From the NCBI RefSeq assembly GCF_006546825.1, contig NZ_VICC01000006.1, forward strand, positions 558,001 to 622,000: a stretch of DNA of 64,000 bases, written 5' to 3'. Positions 1 to 6,093 of this stretch are shown piece by piece; positions within the stretch are counted from its first letter, which is position 1; each line of letters starts with the position of its first letter. A program made the position numbers and the translations under genes. The notes under the pieces are model-generated. The model was not told the DNA's origin. It worked only from the letters and a program-made list of their open reading frames with translations, and made no database searches. The stretch comes from Actinomyces oris (lineage in GTDB: Bacteria > Actinomycetota > Actinomycetes > Actinomycetales > Actinomycetaceae).

Positions 1-1
1 C

Positions 2-1435
2 GAGGTCAAACGCGATCTGTCGTCGCCCGACGGTCCGCTGCGGACGATCGTTGCCTTTGCGAACTCGGCGGGCGGGCGGCTCGTCATCGGGGTCACAGAC
101 GACGGTACGGTCGTCGGCGTCGATGACCCGCTCGCCGAGGAGGAACGCATCGCCAGCCTCATCGACGACCGAATCTCGCCCCAGCTGGTGCCTGCCATCG
201 ACCTAGTGACATTGAGAGACAAGACGGTCCTCATTGTCGACGTGCCGCTCAGCACTCGTCGCCCGCACCACATCACCTGTCTGGGACCGGAAGCCGGCGT
301 CTACGTACGCCTCGGTTCCACCACACGGCAAGCAGACCCGGCACTCGTTGCCGAGTTAGAGCGCAATGCCCGCGGCATCGCTTTCGAAGGCCTGCCCGAG
401 CCACGCGCCATATTTGAGGATCTGGATCTGGAGGTCCTTTCCAAGCTGCGCGGACGCAGCACGTCCGTCGCCGACCTTCTGGCACTCGGCCTCGCCGTCC
501 AACAGGGAGACCAGATCGTCCCCACCAATGCGGGCATCCTCGCAGCCTGCCCCGATCCCACACGCTTTCACCCCTCCGCCTGGGTCCAGTGCGGCCGCCT
601 GCGCGGCCCGCACGGCACAGACATCTTCGACCAGACCGAGATTCACGGCCCCATGCCACTCGCAGTCGACTGTGCCGTGGAGTTCTTGCTCAAACACGCC
701 TACAAGACCGCGGTGTTCGGCGAGGTGCGGCGCCGCGACATCTACTCAATCCCCATCGAGCCGATCCGCGAAGTGATCGTCAACGCCCTTGTGCACGCCT
801 CCTACGCGGAACGCGGCACGCCCATCAGGGTCGGCTTCTACGACGACCGCATTCAGGTGGACAGCCCGGGTTTGCTGTTGCCAGGCATGACCATCGACAC
901 GATGCGACGCGTATCCCGCCTGCGCAACCCCGCCCTCGCGCGCATCTTCCGTGAGGCCGGGATCATGGAGCAGTGGGGCACCGGCGTCCAGCGTGTCTTC
1001 GAGCAAGTGGCCGAAGCCGGCCTGCCCGAGCCCATCATCGAAGAGATCCAGGACCGAGTGAGGGTGACGATCTACATACCCAACCACGATCCACAGCAGG
1101 CTACCGCGCACGGCGCTCGAGAACCGGAAAGCGAGGCGCAGAAGCCAGAGGATCATAACCACCCAGAACATACCTACACACATAGCAATGTCGGTAGGTA
1201 TGATGTGGTTATGATGCGGGCAGCCGCTCAGGGGCCGGTTCACCGAAACGCTCTCCTGGAAGCCGCTGACCTGAAGCCCCTGTCACAGAACTACACGCGT
1301 CACGTGGTTCCACTGGTGAACCGAGGGCTGCTCGCCATGACGGTACCGGACAAGCCCCGCAGCAAAGCACAGCGGTACATCCTGACGGACGAGGGCCGAG
1401 CCTACCTGCGCCACCTCACGGAAGACTCCGAATGA
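2..1435 (+). CDS. AlbA_2 (Schlafen-type) ATP-binding protein with C-terminal winged helix, 5' partial, BREX-associated
   Basis: The reading frame is open from base 2, so the gene starts outside the window. The first ~60 visible codons read like the end of an AlbA_2 domain (FANSAGGRLVIGVTDDG). Next comes a GHKL-type ATPase-like segment (EVIVNALVHASY, then DSPGLLLPG and the G-rich EQWGTGVQRVFE). After a hydrophilic linker, the last ~80 residues look like a winged helix (RNALLEAADLKPLS... VPLVNRGLLAMT). The stop overlaps the pglZ ATG by four bases, so the two are translationally coupled. The position just before pglZ suggests an accessory BREX gene. Such proteins are often annotated as transcriptional regulators or RNA/DNA-binding ATPases. 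The exact role here is not known. Confidence 0.85.
   Translation, partial: EVKRDLSSPDGPLRTIVAFANSAGGRLVIGVTDDGTVVGVDDPLAEEERIASLIDDRISPQLVPAIDLVTLRDKTVLIVDVPLSTRRPHHITCLGPEAGVYVRLGSTTRQADPALVAELERNARGIAFEGLPEPRAIFEDLDLEVLSKLRGRSTSVADLLALGLAVQQGDQIVPTNAGILAACPDPTRFHPSAWVQCGRLRGPHGTDIFDQTEIHGPMPLAVDCAVEFLLKHAYKTAVFGEVRRRDIYSIPIEPIREVIVNALVHASYAERGTPIRVGFYDDRIQVDSPGLLLPGMTIDTMRRVSRLRNPALARIFREAGIMEQWGTGVQRVFEQVAEAGLPEPIIEEIQDRVRVTIYIPNHDPQQATAHGAREPESEAQKPEDHNHPEHTYTHSNVGRYDVVMMRAAAQGPVHRNALLEAADLKPLSQNYTRHVVPLVNRGLLAMTVPDKPRSKAQRYILTDEGRAYLRHLTEDSE
1154..1213. repeat. interrupted 18-bp inverted repeat inside the AlbA_2-type gene
   Basis: Two 9-base arms on each side pair perfectly. CATAACCAC (1154-1162) pairs with GTGGTTATG (1205-1213). 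CATACCTAC (1169-1177) pairs with GTAGGTATG (1194-1202). The loop is 16 bases and the internal bulges are 6 and 2 bases. The repeat lies where the protein passes from the ATPase part to the winged helix and is more AT-rich than its surroundings. Function unknown: it could be a protein-binding site or an mRNA hairpin upstream of pglZ. Confidence 0.6.
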
Positions 1436-3966
1436 ACACCATGACAGCCATCCTGCGCCAGCTCAGCGAGCGCTTCGAGCGTCCCGGCGAAGCCGGGCGG
1501 ATCGTCATCTGGTCGGACCCCGAAGGCAGATACACCGACTCGCTGGATACCTTCTCCCTCCCGGACGTCACCGTGCTGCGGGTGGAAAACAACGAGTTCG
1601 CCCTGAAGCGCCGGGTCTTACTGACCGAATCGAAGCGCAAGTTCCTGCTCTACCGCTTCCGCGAGCCAGACACCCCGGAAACCGTCACCGACAACTGGCT
1701 CAAGGACATGGAGCTCGCTTACGGGACCTTCACCGCGGACCACACCTCGCTCCTGGTGCAGGAGCTCGGGGGCGGATCGGCGCTGCGTAGCGTCGTCGCT
1801 CAGTACCCGCTCTTTTTCGACAGCGGGCAGCGCCGCGACGAGCTCAAGGCCCGCCTGCGCCCGGATGACGACGCTGCCGCCATCGCCGCCTCCATGGTCG
1901 CCGTTGTGCTGGGCACTGAGGAGCGCTCGTTGGAGGCGCTCTGGCGGGCACTGCTGATGGAGAACGCGGACGGGGAGTCCACCGGCATCGATACGATCAC
2001 TCGCCTGGGACTCGCCGAGTTTCACTGGAAAGGGACGCGCAACATCTACGGATACGCCCCCGAGGAAGAGCCCAACGTCGATGACTTCGTGGCGTGGCTA
2101 TTCAACCGGGCGTGGGAAGAGTTCGCCCCCACCCGTGCGGACTTAGGGGCCGAACAGTACGCCAACATCCGCCGCGACTTCAGCACGTGGCACAACGACT
2201 TCCGGTTCGCCGAGTCCTACCGGCGTTTGGCTCGTCGTGCGGCAGAGTTGCTAGGCATTGCGGAGCGTGTCGCCGACTTCGACCTGCCAGAGCTGCTGAG
2301 CCGGCGGACATTCCCTCTGGTGGACCAGGAAATCGTCCGGCGTCTGGCGCAGCAGGTACAAGAGCGCAGCTTGACGGACAAGGAAGTACAGGAGGCCGTG
2401 CAGAGTCGTGCTGCGTTGCCGTGGCACAGCAAGTTCAAGGCCGGTTACGAGGCTGTCAGCGCGGCGTCAACCCTGCTGACTCGTATCGACGCCGGGTCTT
2501 GGAACATGTCCTCCCTGCAGGATGGCTTCGAGCGCTACACCCAGCACTGGTTCACCATTGACCAGGCCTATCGGCGGTTCAACCGAAGCCTCAACCTCTA
2601 CGAGCCGGACTCTGCTCTCGGCATACTGAAGACGGCGGTAGAAGCAGCTTACATCAGAGACTTCCTCACGCCGCTCGGGCAGGAGTGGCGCAGGCACATC
2701 GAGGGTTTGGAACGGTGGGAGGTCGATTCGGTTCCTTCTGCCACGTCTTTCTTCACTGATCAGGTCAGCAGGCCTTGGCTGGACAAGGGCAAGAAGATCG
2801 TCGTCATCATCTCTGACGCGCTGCGCTACGAGGTGGGCGAGGAGCTGGCACGACGTGTCAGCCAGGAGGACCGCTTCACGGCCAGGCCGTCAGCCATGCT
2901 TTCGGTGCTGCCCTCCTACACCCAGCTCGGCATGGCAGCACTATTGCCGCATAAGTCCCTTGCCTTTGCCGACGACGGGTTAGTGGAGGTGGACGGTAAT
3001 CCCAGTGCGGGAACCGAGAACCGCAGCAGGATACTCACGTCAGCAGGGGGTACCGCGATCCAGGCCAATGACCTCCTCGACATGAAGCCAGTTGACGCCC
3101 GCGATTTAGTCAAGAGCCACCAGCTGCTCTACGTCTACCACAACCAGATCGACAACACCGGAGACAAGCAGGCCACCGAGTCAGACACCTTCCGCGCCTG
3201 TGAGGTCGCCATCGAAGAGCTGGTCAGGCTGGTGAAGAAGCTGGCGAACGCCAACGTCAACAACGTCCTCATCACCGCCGATCACGGCTTTCTGTACCAG
3301 GAAAGCCGTTTAGAGGGGCAGGACTATCTATCTGTCAAACCGCACGGTGACACCCTGCTGCATGTGAATCATCGCTTCGCGCTGGGGCACGGCCTCAAGC
3401 GAGACCCCGCATTCATCACCTTCTCATCCCAGCAGCTTCAGATGGTTGGAGACATCGAGGCTCAAGTGCCCGCCTCCATCCACCGAATCCGCACCACCGG
3501 CTCCGGTACGCGTTTCGTGCACGGTGGCGCTTCTCTGCAGGAGGTCGTGGTACCTGTCATCGCCGTCAACAAGGGACGTTCCTCGGACATTCGCAAAACT
3601 CCCGTCAAGATCGTCACCGAAACTGACAAGATCACCACCGGGCAGATCACCATCATGCTGTTCCAACAAGAGCCGGTCAGAGAGAAGGTCAAGGCGCGCC
3701 GCCTGGTCGCAGGACTGTATGCAGGCAACACACTGATCTCCGACGAAGTCACAGTGGACTGCTCACAGGCCTCGCCAGAAGCCAGGGACCGGTTCTTCCC
3801 GCTCACGCTGACGCTGAGTAGGGATGCGGACGCTTTCAACGGCAAGACCATCGAGCTGCGGCTGCACGAACTGGTCGGTTCGCAACGCCGCCCCTATAGC
3901 GAAAAAGCTCATTTCACCCTCTCACGAACCTTCACCAGCGACTTTGGTGCGGACTTCGACTTCTAG
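1432..3966 (+). CDS. pglZ: BREX phosphatase-domain protein PglZ (type A-like)
   Basis: The product is 844 aa, in the usual size range of BREX type 1 PglZ. It belongs to the alkaline-phosphatase superfamily. The metal-binding motifs are visible as IISDALRYEVG (Asp about residue 462) and ITADHGFLYQ (Asp617/His618). PglZ is an essential BREX component that works with the PglX methyltransferase in self/non-self discrimination; its biochemical role is not settled. The ATG overlaps the upstream stop (ATGA), and brxL follows after 9 bases, so the three genes form one transcription unit. brxA, brxB, brxC and pglX would be expected left of the window. Confidence 0.93.
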   Translation: MNTMTAILRQLSERFERPGEAGRIVIWSDPEGRYTDSLDTFSLPDVTVLRVENNEFALKRRVLLTESKRKFLLYRFREPDTPETVTDNWLKDMELAYGTFTADHTSLLVQELGGGSALRSVVAQYPLFFDSGQRRDELKARLRPDDDAAAIAASMVAVVLGTEERSLEALWRALLMENADGESTGIDTITRLGLAEFHWKGTRNIYGYAPEEEPNVDDFVAWLFNRAWEEFAPTRADLGAEQYANIRRDFSTWHNDFRFAESYRRLARRAAELLGIAERVADFDLPELLSRRTFPLVDQEIVRRLAQQVQERSLTDKEVQEAVQSRAALPWHSKFKAGYEAVSAASTLLTRIDAGSWNMSSLQDGFERYTQHWFTIDQAYRRFNRSLNLYEPDSALGILKTAVEAAYIRDFLTPLGQEWRRHIEGLERWEVDSVPSATSFFTDQVSRPWLDKGKKIVVIISDALRYEVGEELARRVSQEDRFTARPSAMLSVLPSYTQLGMAALLPHKSLAFADDGLVEVDGNPSAGTENRSRILTSAGGTAIQANDLLDMKPVDARDLVKSHQLLYVYHNQIDNTGDKQATESDTFRACEVAIEELVRLVKKLANANVNNVLITADHGFLYQESRLEGQDYLSVKPHGDTLLHVNHRFALGHGLKRDPAFITFSSQQLQMVGDIEAQVPASIHRIRTTGSGTRFVHGGASLQEVVVPVIAVNKGRSSDIRKTPVKIVTETDKITTGQITIMLFQQEPVREKVKARRLVAGLYAGNTLISDEVTVDCSQASPEARDRFFPLTLTLSRDADAFNGKTIELRLHELVGSQRRPYSEKAHFTLSRTFTSDFGADFDF

Positions 3967-3975
3967 GATGCAACC

Positions 3976-6093
3976 ATGACAACCCCGGAACCCACCGAGC
4001 TCGAGCTGGCTGACCAGCTACAACACATCTCCCCCACGCCGCTGGACCGCAAGATCGCAGCGGCCTTCCCCGGCGTCGTCGTCCGCAAGGACCTTGTCAA
4101 GACCGTCAAGGGCAACGCCATCGTGCCCACTTACGTCCTGGAGTACCTGCTAGGCCAGTACGCGGCCACGGACGATGAGGCCACTATCCGTTCCGGCATC
4201 GAGCACGTCCGAACCATCCTCCGGGACCACTACGTGCACCGAGGGGAGAACCGACTCATCCAGTCGCGCATCCGGGAGAAGGGCCGGCACCGCATCATTG
4301 ACAAGGTCTCCGTCTCCCTCAATGAGAGGCTGGACATCTATGAGGCCGAGTTCTCCAACCTGGGCATCAGCAGGGTGGAGGTCAGTGCAGAAACGGTACG
4401 CAACCACCCCAAGCTCCTGACCGGCGGTGTCTGGTGCATCTGCGACATCGTCTACGCCTACTCGGGCAACTCAAAAGACGTTCCCTGGCGGTTGCACTCA
4501 CTCAAGCCCATCCAGCTCTCACGCCTGGACCTGGACTCCTATACTCACACCCGGGAACAGTTCAGCACCGAGGAGTGGATCGACCTACTCATTCAGTCCA
4601 TCGGTTTCAACCCCGCCATGTTCGGCCCCCGCGCCAAGCTCCTTCACCTGGTGCGGCTGATTCCTTTCGTTGAGCGCAACTACAACCTGGTGGAGCTCGG
4701 CCCCAAGGGAACCGGCAAGTCGCACATCTACTCCGAGTTCTCACCTCACGGCATGTTGATCTCCGGGGGCGAGGTGACCGTCCCGAAACTCTTCGTGAAC
4801 AACGCCTCCGGGAGAATCGGGCTGGTCGGCTACTGGGACTGCGTTGCCTTTGACGAGTTCGCCGGAAAGAAAAAACGTGCCGACCGCGCACTCGTTGACA
4901 TCATGAAGAACTACATGGCCAACAAGTCCTTCTCCCGCGGTGTCGAGACACTCGGCGCGGAAGCATCCATGGTGTTCGTTGGCAACACCTCCCATACTGT
5001 GCCCTATATGCTCAAGAACTCCGACCTGTTCGAGGAGCTTCCCGAGCAGTACCATGATCCTGCTTTCCTGGACCGCATCCACTGCTACGTGCCCGGTTGG
5101 GAGTTCGAGCAGATTCGTGGCGAGATGTTCTCCGGCGGCTACGGCTTCGTCGTCGACTACCTGGCCGAGGTCCTCCGCTCTTTGCGCGACATCGACTACT
5201 CGCACCACTATGAACGCTATTTCGCGCTATCGGACGACCTGTCCACTCGTGATCGAGATGGCATCCACAAGACCTTCTCCGGCCTCATGAAGCTCATCCA
5301 TCCCTCCGGGCAGGCCAGCCCAGATGAGATCGGTGCCCAGCTTCGGATCGCACTCGAAGGGCGTAAACGCGTCAAGGACCAGCTCATCCGCATCGATGAC
5401 ACCATGACGGCGGTCAACTTCGAATACACCCACGCGGGACAGACCCATAAGGTGACTACTCTGGAGGAAGACGAGTATCCAGAGCTATACCACCCGGGTA
5501 CCGAAGCAGGCGCGGCCCGCTCCGAATCCGCTGATAAGACCACTCCAACCAACGGCGCCAACAGCACCGTTGACGTGGCTCCCAAGAAGCAGAACTCGAG
5601 ACCAGAACTGAAAGAACAGCGTCTCGAGCTCGCCGAAGGTAGGCGCGGCTTCACTTTCGACCGGTATATTGGCCCATATGTGCGCGGAGCTACCCGTATC
5701 GATGTCGTTGACCCGTATATCCGCCAGCCCTACCAGGCGCGCAACCTGATGGAGCTCATTGAGACCATCGCCAAATACACCGACACCACAAAGGAAATCA
5801 CCGTCCACCTGACCACCAAATGCGATAAAGATCCGGACTATGCAACCAAGCAGCAGGAGAAACTAGAGACGATCCGCACCAACTCGGCCGTCGCCGGCAT
5901 CAAGTTCGAGTATTCATTCAACGACACTATCCATGACCGCTCGATCACTACCGACACGGACTGGATCATCATGTTGGGACGCGGACTGGACGTATTCCAG
6001 CCCTTCGATACCGACTGGCTCGATCTGCGCCTGCGTCAGCAGTACTTCCGCCAGGTCAAGGAGTTCACCATCGCATACATGCGCAAGCAGTAG
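3976..6093 (+). CDS. brxL: BrxL-type AAA+ BREX protein with C-terminal MIT_C-like domain
   Basis: The product is 705 aa. The N-terminal ~240 residues and the ATPase are BrxL-like: Walker A GPKGTGKS at 242-249, Walker B VAFDEF at 290-295, and the BrxL segments FSGLMKLIHPSGQ and ALEGRKRVKDQL. In typical BrxL a Lon-like protease domain follows. Here there is instead a Ser/Thr/Pro-rich linker (about 500-550), then residues ~556-705 with DPYIRQPYQARNLMEL, HDRSITTDTDWI (from 653) and LGRGLDVFQPFD (from 667). These resemble the MIT_C (MITD1 C-terminal, phospholipase-D-like fold) family. No Lon Ser/Lys dyad motif was recognised. The domain swap is an inference from motif recognition; the BrxL assignment itself is firm. 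Confidence 0.9.
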   Translation: MTTPEPTELELADQLQHISPTPLDRKIAAAFPGVVVRKDLVKTVKGNAIVPTYVLEYLLGQYAATDDEATIRSGIEHVRTILRDHYVHRGENRLIQSRIREKGRHRIIDKVSVSLNERLDIYEAEFSNLGISRVEVSAETVRNHPKLLTGGVWCICDIVYAYSGNSKDVPWRLHSLKPIQLSRLDLDSYTHTREQFSTEEWIDLLIQSIGFNPAMFGPRAKLLHLVRLIPFVERNYNLVELGPKGTGKSHIYSEFSPHGMLISGGEVTVPKLFVNNASGRIGLVGYWDCVAFDEFAGKKKRADRALVDIMKNYMANKSFSRGVETLGAEASMVFVGNTSHTVPYMLKNSDLFEELPEQYHDPAFLDRIHCYVPGWEFEQIRGEMFSGGYGFVVDYLAEVLRSLRDIDYSHHYERYFALSDDLSTRDRDGIHKTFSGLMKLIHPSGQASPDEIGAQLRIALEGRKRVKDQLIRIDDTMTAVNFEYTHAGQTHKVTTLEEDEYPELYHPGTEAGAARSESADKTTPTNGANSTVDVAPKKQNSRPELKEQRLELAEGRRGFTFDRYIGPYVRGATRIDVVDPYIRQPYQARNLMELIETIAKYTDTTKEITVHLTTKCDKDPDYATKQQEKLETIRTNSAVAGIKFEYSFNDTIHDRSITTDTDWIIMLGRGLDVFQPFDTDWLDLRLRQQYFRQVKEFTIAYMRKQ

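What the first reader, a model, noticed from the sequence alone, without database searches (positions are those of the whole stretch)
3976..6093. BrxL whose C-terminal Lon-like domain appears replaced by an MIT_C-type domain
Up to ~residue 460 the protein reads as BrxL (Walker A 242-249, Walker B 290-295, ALEGRKRVKDQL). Instead of a Lon-like domain, a flexible linker and then an MITD1-C-like block (DPYIR, HDRSI, LGRGLDVFQ) follow. In eukaryotes this domain has a phospholipase-D-like fold and binds membranes or acidic lipids. A BREX motor with this end would need a different way of acting, for example membrane or nucleic-acid targeting.
Basis: partly seen in the sequence, partly recalled or inferred. 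Interest (0 to 1): 0.75.

Follow-up and report, generated by a model that had tools for sequence, protein, structure and literature searches.

The report
BrxL with MITD1-like PLD-fold tail
This is a complete type 1 BREX anti-phage operon whose ring-shaped motor protein BrxL ends in a phospholipase-D-fold domain shared with human MITD1 instead of the usual inert Lon-like domain; the swap is real and common, and was already published as a likely DNA-cutting variant, but whether the domain cuts DNA or only binds something is still untested.

Summary
Window 3976-6093 encodes BrxL_N + BrxL_ATPase + MIT_C (E = 1e-38, residues 558-703). The predicted C-terminal fold (pLDDT 94) matches human MITD1-C (Z 22.6), then PLD-fold enzymes. 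No Lon-like domain remains. The locus is a complete type 1 BREX operon.

The variant is not new. PADLOC has a full-length model, at least 80 full-length relatives exist across phyla, and a 2026 NAR survey reports the swap in 1030 of 2913 type 1 BrxL taxa as an HKD-endoDNase with an HRD motif (PMC12839542). Membrane targeting is possible but not favoured. It does not track with AlbA_2 (about 16 of 80 loci).

What I add: the HxR site, Asp579, Arg583, Gln587, Asn590 and GRGLD are near-invariant and shared with human MITD1, described as a membrane tether, so 'active nuclease' is not established. MIT_C also sits on a type-4-like BrxL (single clade rejected, p = 2.6e-7). Other BrxLs end in a Schlafen AlbA_2 or kinase domain. 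BrxL's C-terminus looks like an exchangeable effector slot.

The parts
3976..6093 (+). brxL, 705 aa, BrxL_N + BrxL_ATPase + MIT_C
4063..4455 (+). BrxL_N domain, residues 30-160
   Evidence: PF20442, E 5e-47
4489..5409 (+). BrxL AAA+ (MCM-like) ATPase domain, residues 172-478
   Evidence: PF13337, E 2e-126; matches 8EMC
4699..4722 (+). Walker A GPKGTGKS, residues 242-249
   Evidence: sequence; invariant in 42 rows
4843..4860 (+). Walker B VAFDEF, residues 290-295
   Evidence: sequence
5500..5598 (+). flexible linker, residues 509-541
   Evidence: pLDDT under 50 in the full-length model; poorly conserved
5647..6084 (+). MIT_C / MITD1-C-like PLD-fold domain, residues 558-703, in place of the Lon-like domain
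   Evidence: PF16565 E 1e-38; fold Z 22.6 to MITD1
5710..5724 (+). DPYIR motif, residues 579-583
   Evidence: D579 and R583 present in every row that covers them; same residues in human MITD1
5932..5955 (+). HDRSITTD, HxR(x4)D motif at the place of the PLD HxK(x4)D motif, residues 653-660
   Evidence: H653 87 of 87, R655 86 of 87, D660 77 of 87 and Asn in the other 10
5977..5991 (+). GRGLD motif, residues 668-672, at the place of the PLD GSxN motif
   Evidence: R669, G670, L671 and D672 87 of 87
1432..3966 (+). pglZ, BREX-1 type A; overlaps the AlbA_2 gene by 4 bases and ends 9 bases before brxL
   Evidence: TIGR02687 E 7e-194; PF08665
1..1435 (+). SLFN_AlbA_2 + HATPase_c_4 + Fic-like_C gene (498 aa in full; it starts 62 bases before the window)

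Best explanation
It is the BrxL subunit of a complete type 1 BREX system, of the published subclass in which the Lon-like tail is replaced by a PLD-fold domain of the MITD1-C (MIT_C) family. Most likely the N-terminal and AAA+ parts assemble in an ATP-dependent way as a ring around DNA, as shown for Acinetobacter BrxL. The tail sits where the Lon-like domain joins two rings, and there it acts as an effector on phosphodiesters in the loaded DNA, using H653 as nucleophile and R655, R669 and the other conserved Arg, Gln and Asn residues to hold the phosphate. A PLD-type site of this kind needs two chains, which the tail-to-tail double ring could supply. Shown here: domain content, predicted fold, residue conservation, operon context. 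Inferred from a homologue: ring assembly. Inferred only: position of the tail, dimeric site, DNA cleavage.
For: Fold: MITD1-C first, then PLD-fold enzymes including SauUSI, NgoAVII R-protein, BfiI, Nuc and NucT. H653 in 87 of 87 rows, R655 in 86 of 87, D or N at 660 in all, R669 and D672 in all: an HxR(x4)D/N layout at the HKD position. A genuine HKD protein with HxK(x4)D and GSxN is picked up weakly by the Pfam MIT_C profile and by my own HMM, with the His columns aligned. The domain occurs in the bacteria sampled essentially only on BrxL (all matches over the cut-off). Other BrxLs carry different effector-like domains at the same position (Schlafen, kinase). A published survey reaches the same reading (PMC12839542). 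The BrxL ring, DNA loading and CTD-mediated ring dimerisation are established for 8EMC (PMC10164562).
Against: The catalytic Lys is Arg, and GSxN is GRGLD. The same residues are conserved in human MITD1, described as a membrane-binding tether (PMC6015221); I found no report of nuclease activity for it. One relative (L114, Tenacibaculum) has HDC instead of HDR. PglZ is already reported as a nuclease in type 1 BREX, so a second one is not required. No multimer model could be made, and the full-length model of the AAA+ part is poor.
Confidence: 0.5

Rival explanations
1. The MIT_C domain is a non-catalytic PLD-fold module. It replaces the Lon-like domain only as the contact that joins two BrxL rings, or as a binder of a phosphate-bearing ligand (DNA backbone, nucleotide) that licenses the motor. 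PglZ does the cutting.
For: The Lon-like domain it replaces is itself inactive and mediates ring dimerisation (PMC10164562). Lys and GSxN of the HKD motif are missing. The same site is conserved in MITD1, for which I found no reported catalysis. One relative has lost R655.
Against: H653, R655, R669 and D672 and the polar residues D579, R583, Q587 and N590 are almost perfectly kept, more than a structural spacer needs. At the same position other BrxLs carry catalytic-type domains.
Confidence: 0.33
2. The domain anchors BrxL to the cell membrane or acidic lipids, as MITD1-C does in eukaryotes, placing the motor near the site of phage DNA entry.
For: Closest solved structure and sequence is MITD1-C (Z 22.6, 26% identity), a membrane-binding domain needed for abscission (PMC6015221). 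Columns at least 95% conserved in bacteria are much more often identical to human than other columns (19 of 24 against 31 of 96, Fisher p = 5e-5).
Against: The shared residues map to the place of the PLD active site, not to a known lipid-binding patch (which I could not examine: the MITD1 papers are not held). All bacterial matches over the cut-off are on a DNA-loaded motor. No transmembrane or amphipathic feature was looked for.
Confidence: 0.12

Closest known systems
BrxL with C-terminal HKD-endoDNase (type 1 BREX, PMC12839542; PADLOC PDLC02508)
   Same: Same architecture and same HxR-D motif; PDLC02508 aligns over residues 23-704 at 1056 bits. Published in 1030 of 2913 taxa with type 1 BrxL.
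   Different: Nothing specific to this protein. The main text of the published description does not mention the relation to MITD1.
BrxL of Acinetobacter (8EMC/8EMH)
   Same: N-terminal and AAA+ domains, E about 1e-135 over 464 residues.
   Different: It ends in a Lon-like inactive domain; here MIT_C.
Human MITD1 C-terminal domain (2YMB, 4A5Z; Pfam MIT_C)
   Same: Fold (Z 22.6) and the DPYxR, Q, N, HDR, W, GRGLD residues.
   Different: No MIT domain and no ESCRT-III partner; fused to a DNA-binding AAA+ ring.
Single-HKD PLD-fold nucleases (Nuc, NucT, BfiI, NgoAVII R, SauUSI)
   Same: PLD fold with one HxR/K motif per chain (Z 8.0-9.6).
   Different: Arg for Lys; GRGLD for GSxN; no activity shown.

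Membership tests
BrxL (type 1 BREX) | BrxL_N and BrxL_ATPase domains with Walker A and B | tested here: met
BrxL (type 1 BREX) | Lon-like C-terminal domain (the TIGR02653 type) | tested here: not met
   TIGR02653 matches only to position 470 of 675 and is below its cut-off; Lon-tail HMM finds none of the MIT_C rows. TIGR02688, which stops before the tail, is met.
Type 1 BREX | brxA, brxB, brxC, pglX, pglZ and brxL together | tested here: met
   All six in one operon, L003 9035 onward to window 6093
BrxL-HKD variant (PMC12839542) | PLD-fold C-terminal domain with HRD motif on a type 1 BrxL | tested here: met
   text
MIT_C (PF16565) | Score over the gathering cut-off across the whole profile, MITD1-C fold | tested here: met
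   132.9 bits against 25, 1-142 of 142; Z 22.6
HKD/PLD nuclease superfamily (active members) | HxK(x4)D followed by GSxN | tested here: not met
   H and D/N kept, K is R, GSxN is GRGLD
HKD/PLD nuclease superfamily (active members) | DNA cleavage | not testable with these tools
   needs purified protein

The most novel reading that the evidence does not exclude
BrxL's C-terminus is a general exchangeable effector slot. A Lon-like domain, MIT_C (placed on BrxL at least twice, once in a type-4-like BREX), a Schlafen AlbA_2 domain (in at least two branches) and a protein kinase occupy the same position behind the same DNA-loaded ring, so the ring couples DNA loading to different outputs. MIT_C would then be a catalytic member whose HxR site is also kept in human MITD1.
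Probability: 0.4. Interest if true: 0.65.

Novelty: new member of a known kind. Interest (0 to 1): 0.36.

Why it matters
How BREX restricts phage is still open. If BrxL variants differ only in an exchangeable tail, swapping or mutating the tail tells directly what BrxL contributes. The shared site with human MITD1 links a bacterial defence motor to an ESCRT factor and makes one question testable on both sides: is the HxR site of MIT_C domains catalytic?

Tried and rejected
Membrane-targeting reading: kept as a rival only. Chance match to MIT_C: rejected (E 1e-38, fold Z 22.6). Cryptic Lon-like domain: rejected. Tracking with AlbA_2: not supported. Weak MIT_C hits in other proteins (E about 1e-4): one is an ordinary HKD protein (L125); two looked at (L150, L153) lie in stretches with short-chain dehydrogenase and ABC-transporter genes, without a recognisable PLD protein, and were taken as chance; two (L151, L152) were not examined. 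P0002 search in viral contigs: no relatives. The MITD1 structure papers and the Menshen paper cited for BrxL-HKD are not held. Full-length model: AAA+ part too poor to use. MIT_C domain tree could not place MITD1 or the type-4-like tail (long branches).

Full report
CHECK OF THE OBSERVATION. Pfam assigns BrxL_N 30-160, BrxL_ATPase 172-478 and MIT_C 558-703, the last with 132.9 bits over the whole profile. Against solved structures the protein splits cleanly: residues 21-484 to BrxL 8EMC/8EMH, residues 547-676 to human MITD1 2YMB/4A5Z. The C-terminal 169 residues, predicted from 62 aligned tails, have mean pLDDT 94. The nearest folds are MITD1-C (Foldseek E 2.5e-17; Z 22.6, rmsd 2.5 over 155 residues, 26% identity), then SauUSI, NucT, phosphatidylserine synthase, Tdp1, NgoAVII R, BfiI, Nuc and others at Z 8-10. 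Z near 8 alone may mean little by the tool's own note, but nearly all the leading rows are of one superfamily. The full-length model shows the linker 509-541 as disordered and the tail as confident; its AAA+ part is poor and was not used. An HMM from Lon-type BrxL tails hits most non-MIT_C BrxLs and none of the MIT_C ones.

CONTEXT. Reading the genome upstream of the window (L003) completes the operon: brxA, brxB, brxC, pglX, an AAA_13 ATPase gene, the AlbA_2 gene, pglZ type A, brxL. brxL is the last gene; the next gene is on the other strand (EamA transporter). So this is a full type 1 BREX with two accessory genes between pglX and pglZ. Both kinds of accessory gene have parallels in the published survey (ABC-ATPases and Schlafen genes beside BREX).

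HOW COMMON. A scan of genome contigs found 530 stretches encoding a relative, and the 80 kept all match into the C-terminus and all carry MIT_C. In samples of about 400 genomes each, MIT_C was on BrxL in 4 of 22 other genomes with BrxL in the window's phylum (one of the 22 only a fragment) and in 6 of 16 in the phylum of G396, about a quarter together; the published figure is 1030 of 2913. All MIT_C matches over the family cut-off in these samples are BrxL tails. AlbA_2 relatives lie near about 16 of the 80 loci, so the two do not travel together; tblastn may miss diverged copies.

SITE. Over 87 tails H653 is invariant, R655 is Arg in 86, position 660 is Asp in 77 and Asn in 10, and R669-G-L-D672 is invariant; D579, R583, Q587 and N590 are almost so. 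The layout is HxR(x4)D/N followed by GRGLD, where active PLD enzymes have HxK(x4)D and GSxN. Human MITD1 has the same residues (Asn at the place of D660), and columns at least 95% conserved in bacteria match human in 19 of 24 cases against 31 of 96 for the rest (p = 5e-5). The site is therefore a property of the MIT_C family and not an adaptation special to BrxL. That weakens the inference 'HRD, hence nuclease' as much as 'MITD1, hence membrane'; experiments must decide.

ORIGIN. On a tree of the N-terminal and AAA+ parts, type 1 MIT_C BrxLs form one fully supported clade next to Lon-type BrxLs. One MIT_C BrxL (G060; L124:8969-11032) lies elsewhere, with a 485-aa BrxL of an Abditibacteriota plasmid that has no tail (support 100/100). 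The two loci share gene order: DUF4007 (SspB-like), small gene, 1374/1371-aa gene (SspC-like ATPase in G060), PglZ-like, BrxL. A single MIT_C clade is rejected (p-AU 2.6e-7). The survey states that type 4 BrxL has no C-terminal extension and that the HKD variants are type-1-specific; G060 is one exception, in a locus with a DrmMI-like methyltransferase nearby, so its exact type is open, and it is a single genome.

OTHER TAILS. In the same phylum sample four genomes have BrxL ending in SLFN_AlbA_2 (L089, L091, L103, L108), falling in two places on the tree, and one has BrxL ending in a protein kinase (L107). L161, L162 and L163 have pglX upstream of brxL, and L161 also a detectable pglZ. The main text of the survey does not mention such fusions as far as the searched terms show; its supplements could not be read. 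Together these suggest that the BrxL C-terminus is an exchangeable output slot, the main thing added here beyond what was published.

VERDICT. Observation confirmed; interpretation partly supported; architecture already published; mechanism untested. Most likely a PLD-fold effector on a DNA-loaded ring (0.5), with a non-catalytic ring-joining or binding module next (0.33) and membrane anchoring last (0.12).

Noticed in passing
L161:7941-9968 (-), L164:2953-5052 (-), L091, L108: BrxL proteins ending in a Schlafen AlbA_2 domain instead of Lon-like or MIT_C, in four genomes and two branches of the BrxL tree; the same domain type that the window's operon carries as a separate gene.
   Followed up: partly
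L162:8344-10791 (+): BrxL (816 aa) ending in a protein-kinase domain (PF00069, E 1e-33) in a BREX locus with pglX upstream.
   Followed up: partly
L124:8969-11032 (-): MIT_C on a BrxL of a type-4-like locus (SspB-like DUF4007, SspC-like ATPase, divergent PglZ, DrmMI-like methyltransferase); the syntenic relative L156:8953-10410 has no tail.
   Followed up: yes
L003:17443-19842 (+), just upstream of the window: 799-aa AAA_13 ATPase gene with a CLFCGQ (CxxC) in its middle, inside the BREX operon; PADLOC candidate PDC-S06 (E 3.5e-135). Recalls RloC-type anticodon nucleases from memory; not tested.
   Followed up: partly
window 1-1435 (+): SLFN_AlbA_2 + HATPase_c_4 + Fic-like_C gene in the operon between the AAA_13 gene and pglZ, overlapping both by 4 bases.
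   Followed up: partly
L114:5995-7998 (+): Tenacibaculum plasmid BrxL-MIT_C with HDC in place of HDR, the only one of 87 tails that lacks the Arg; a natural test case for whether that residue matters.
   Followed up: no
L116 around 4001-4246: Sphingobium plasmid: the last part of a BrxL-MIT_C gene next to an IS21 element, apparently a remnant.
   Followed up: no
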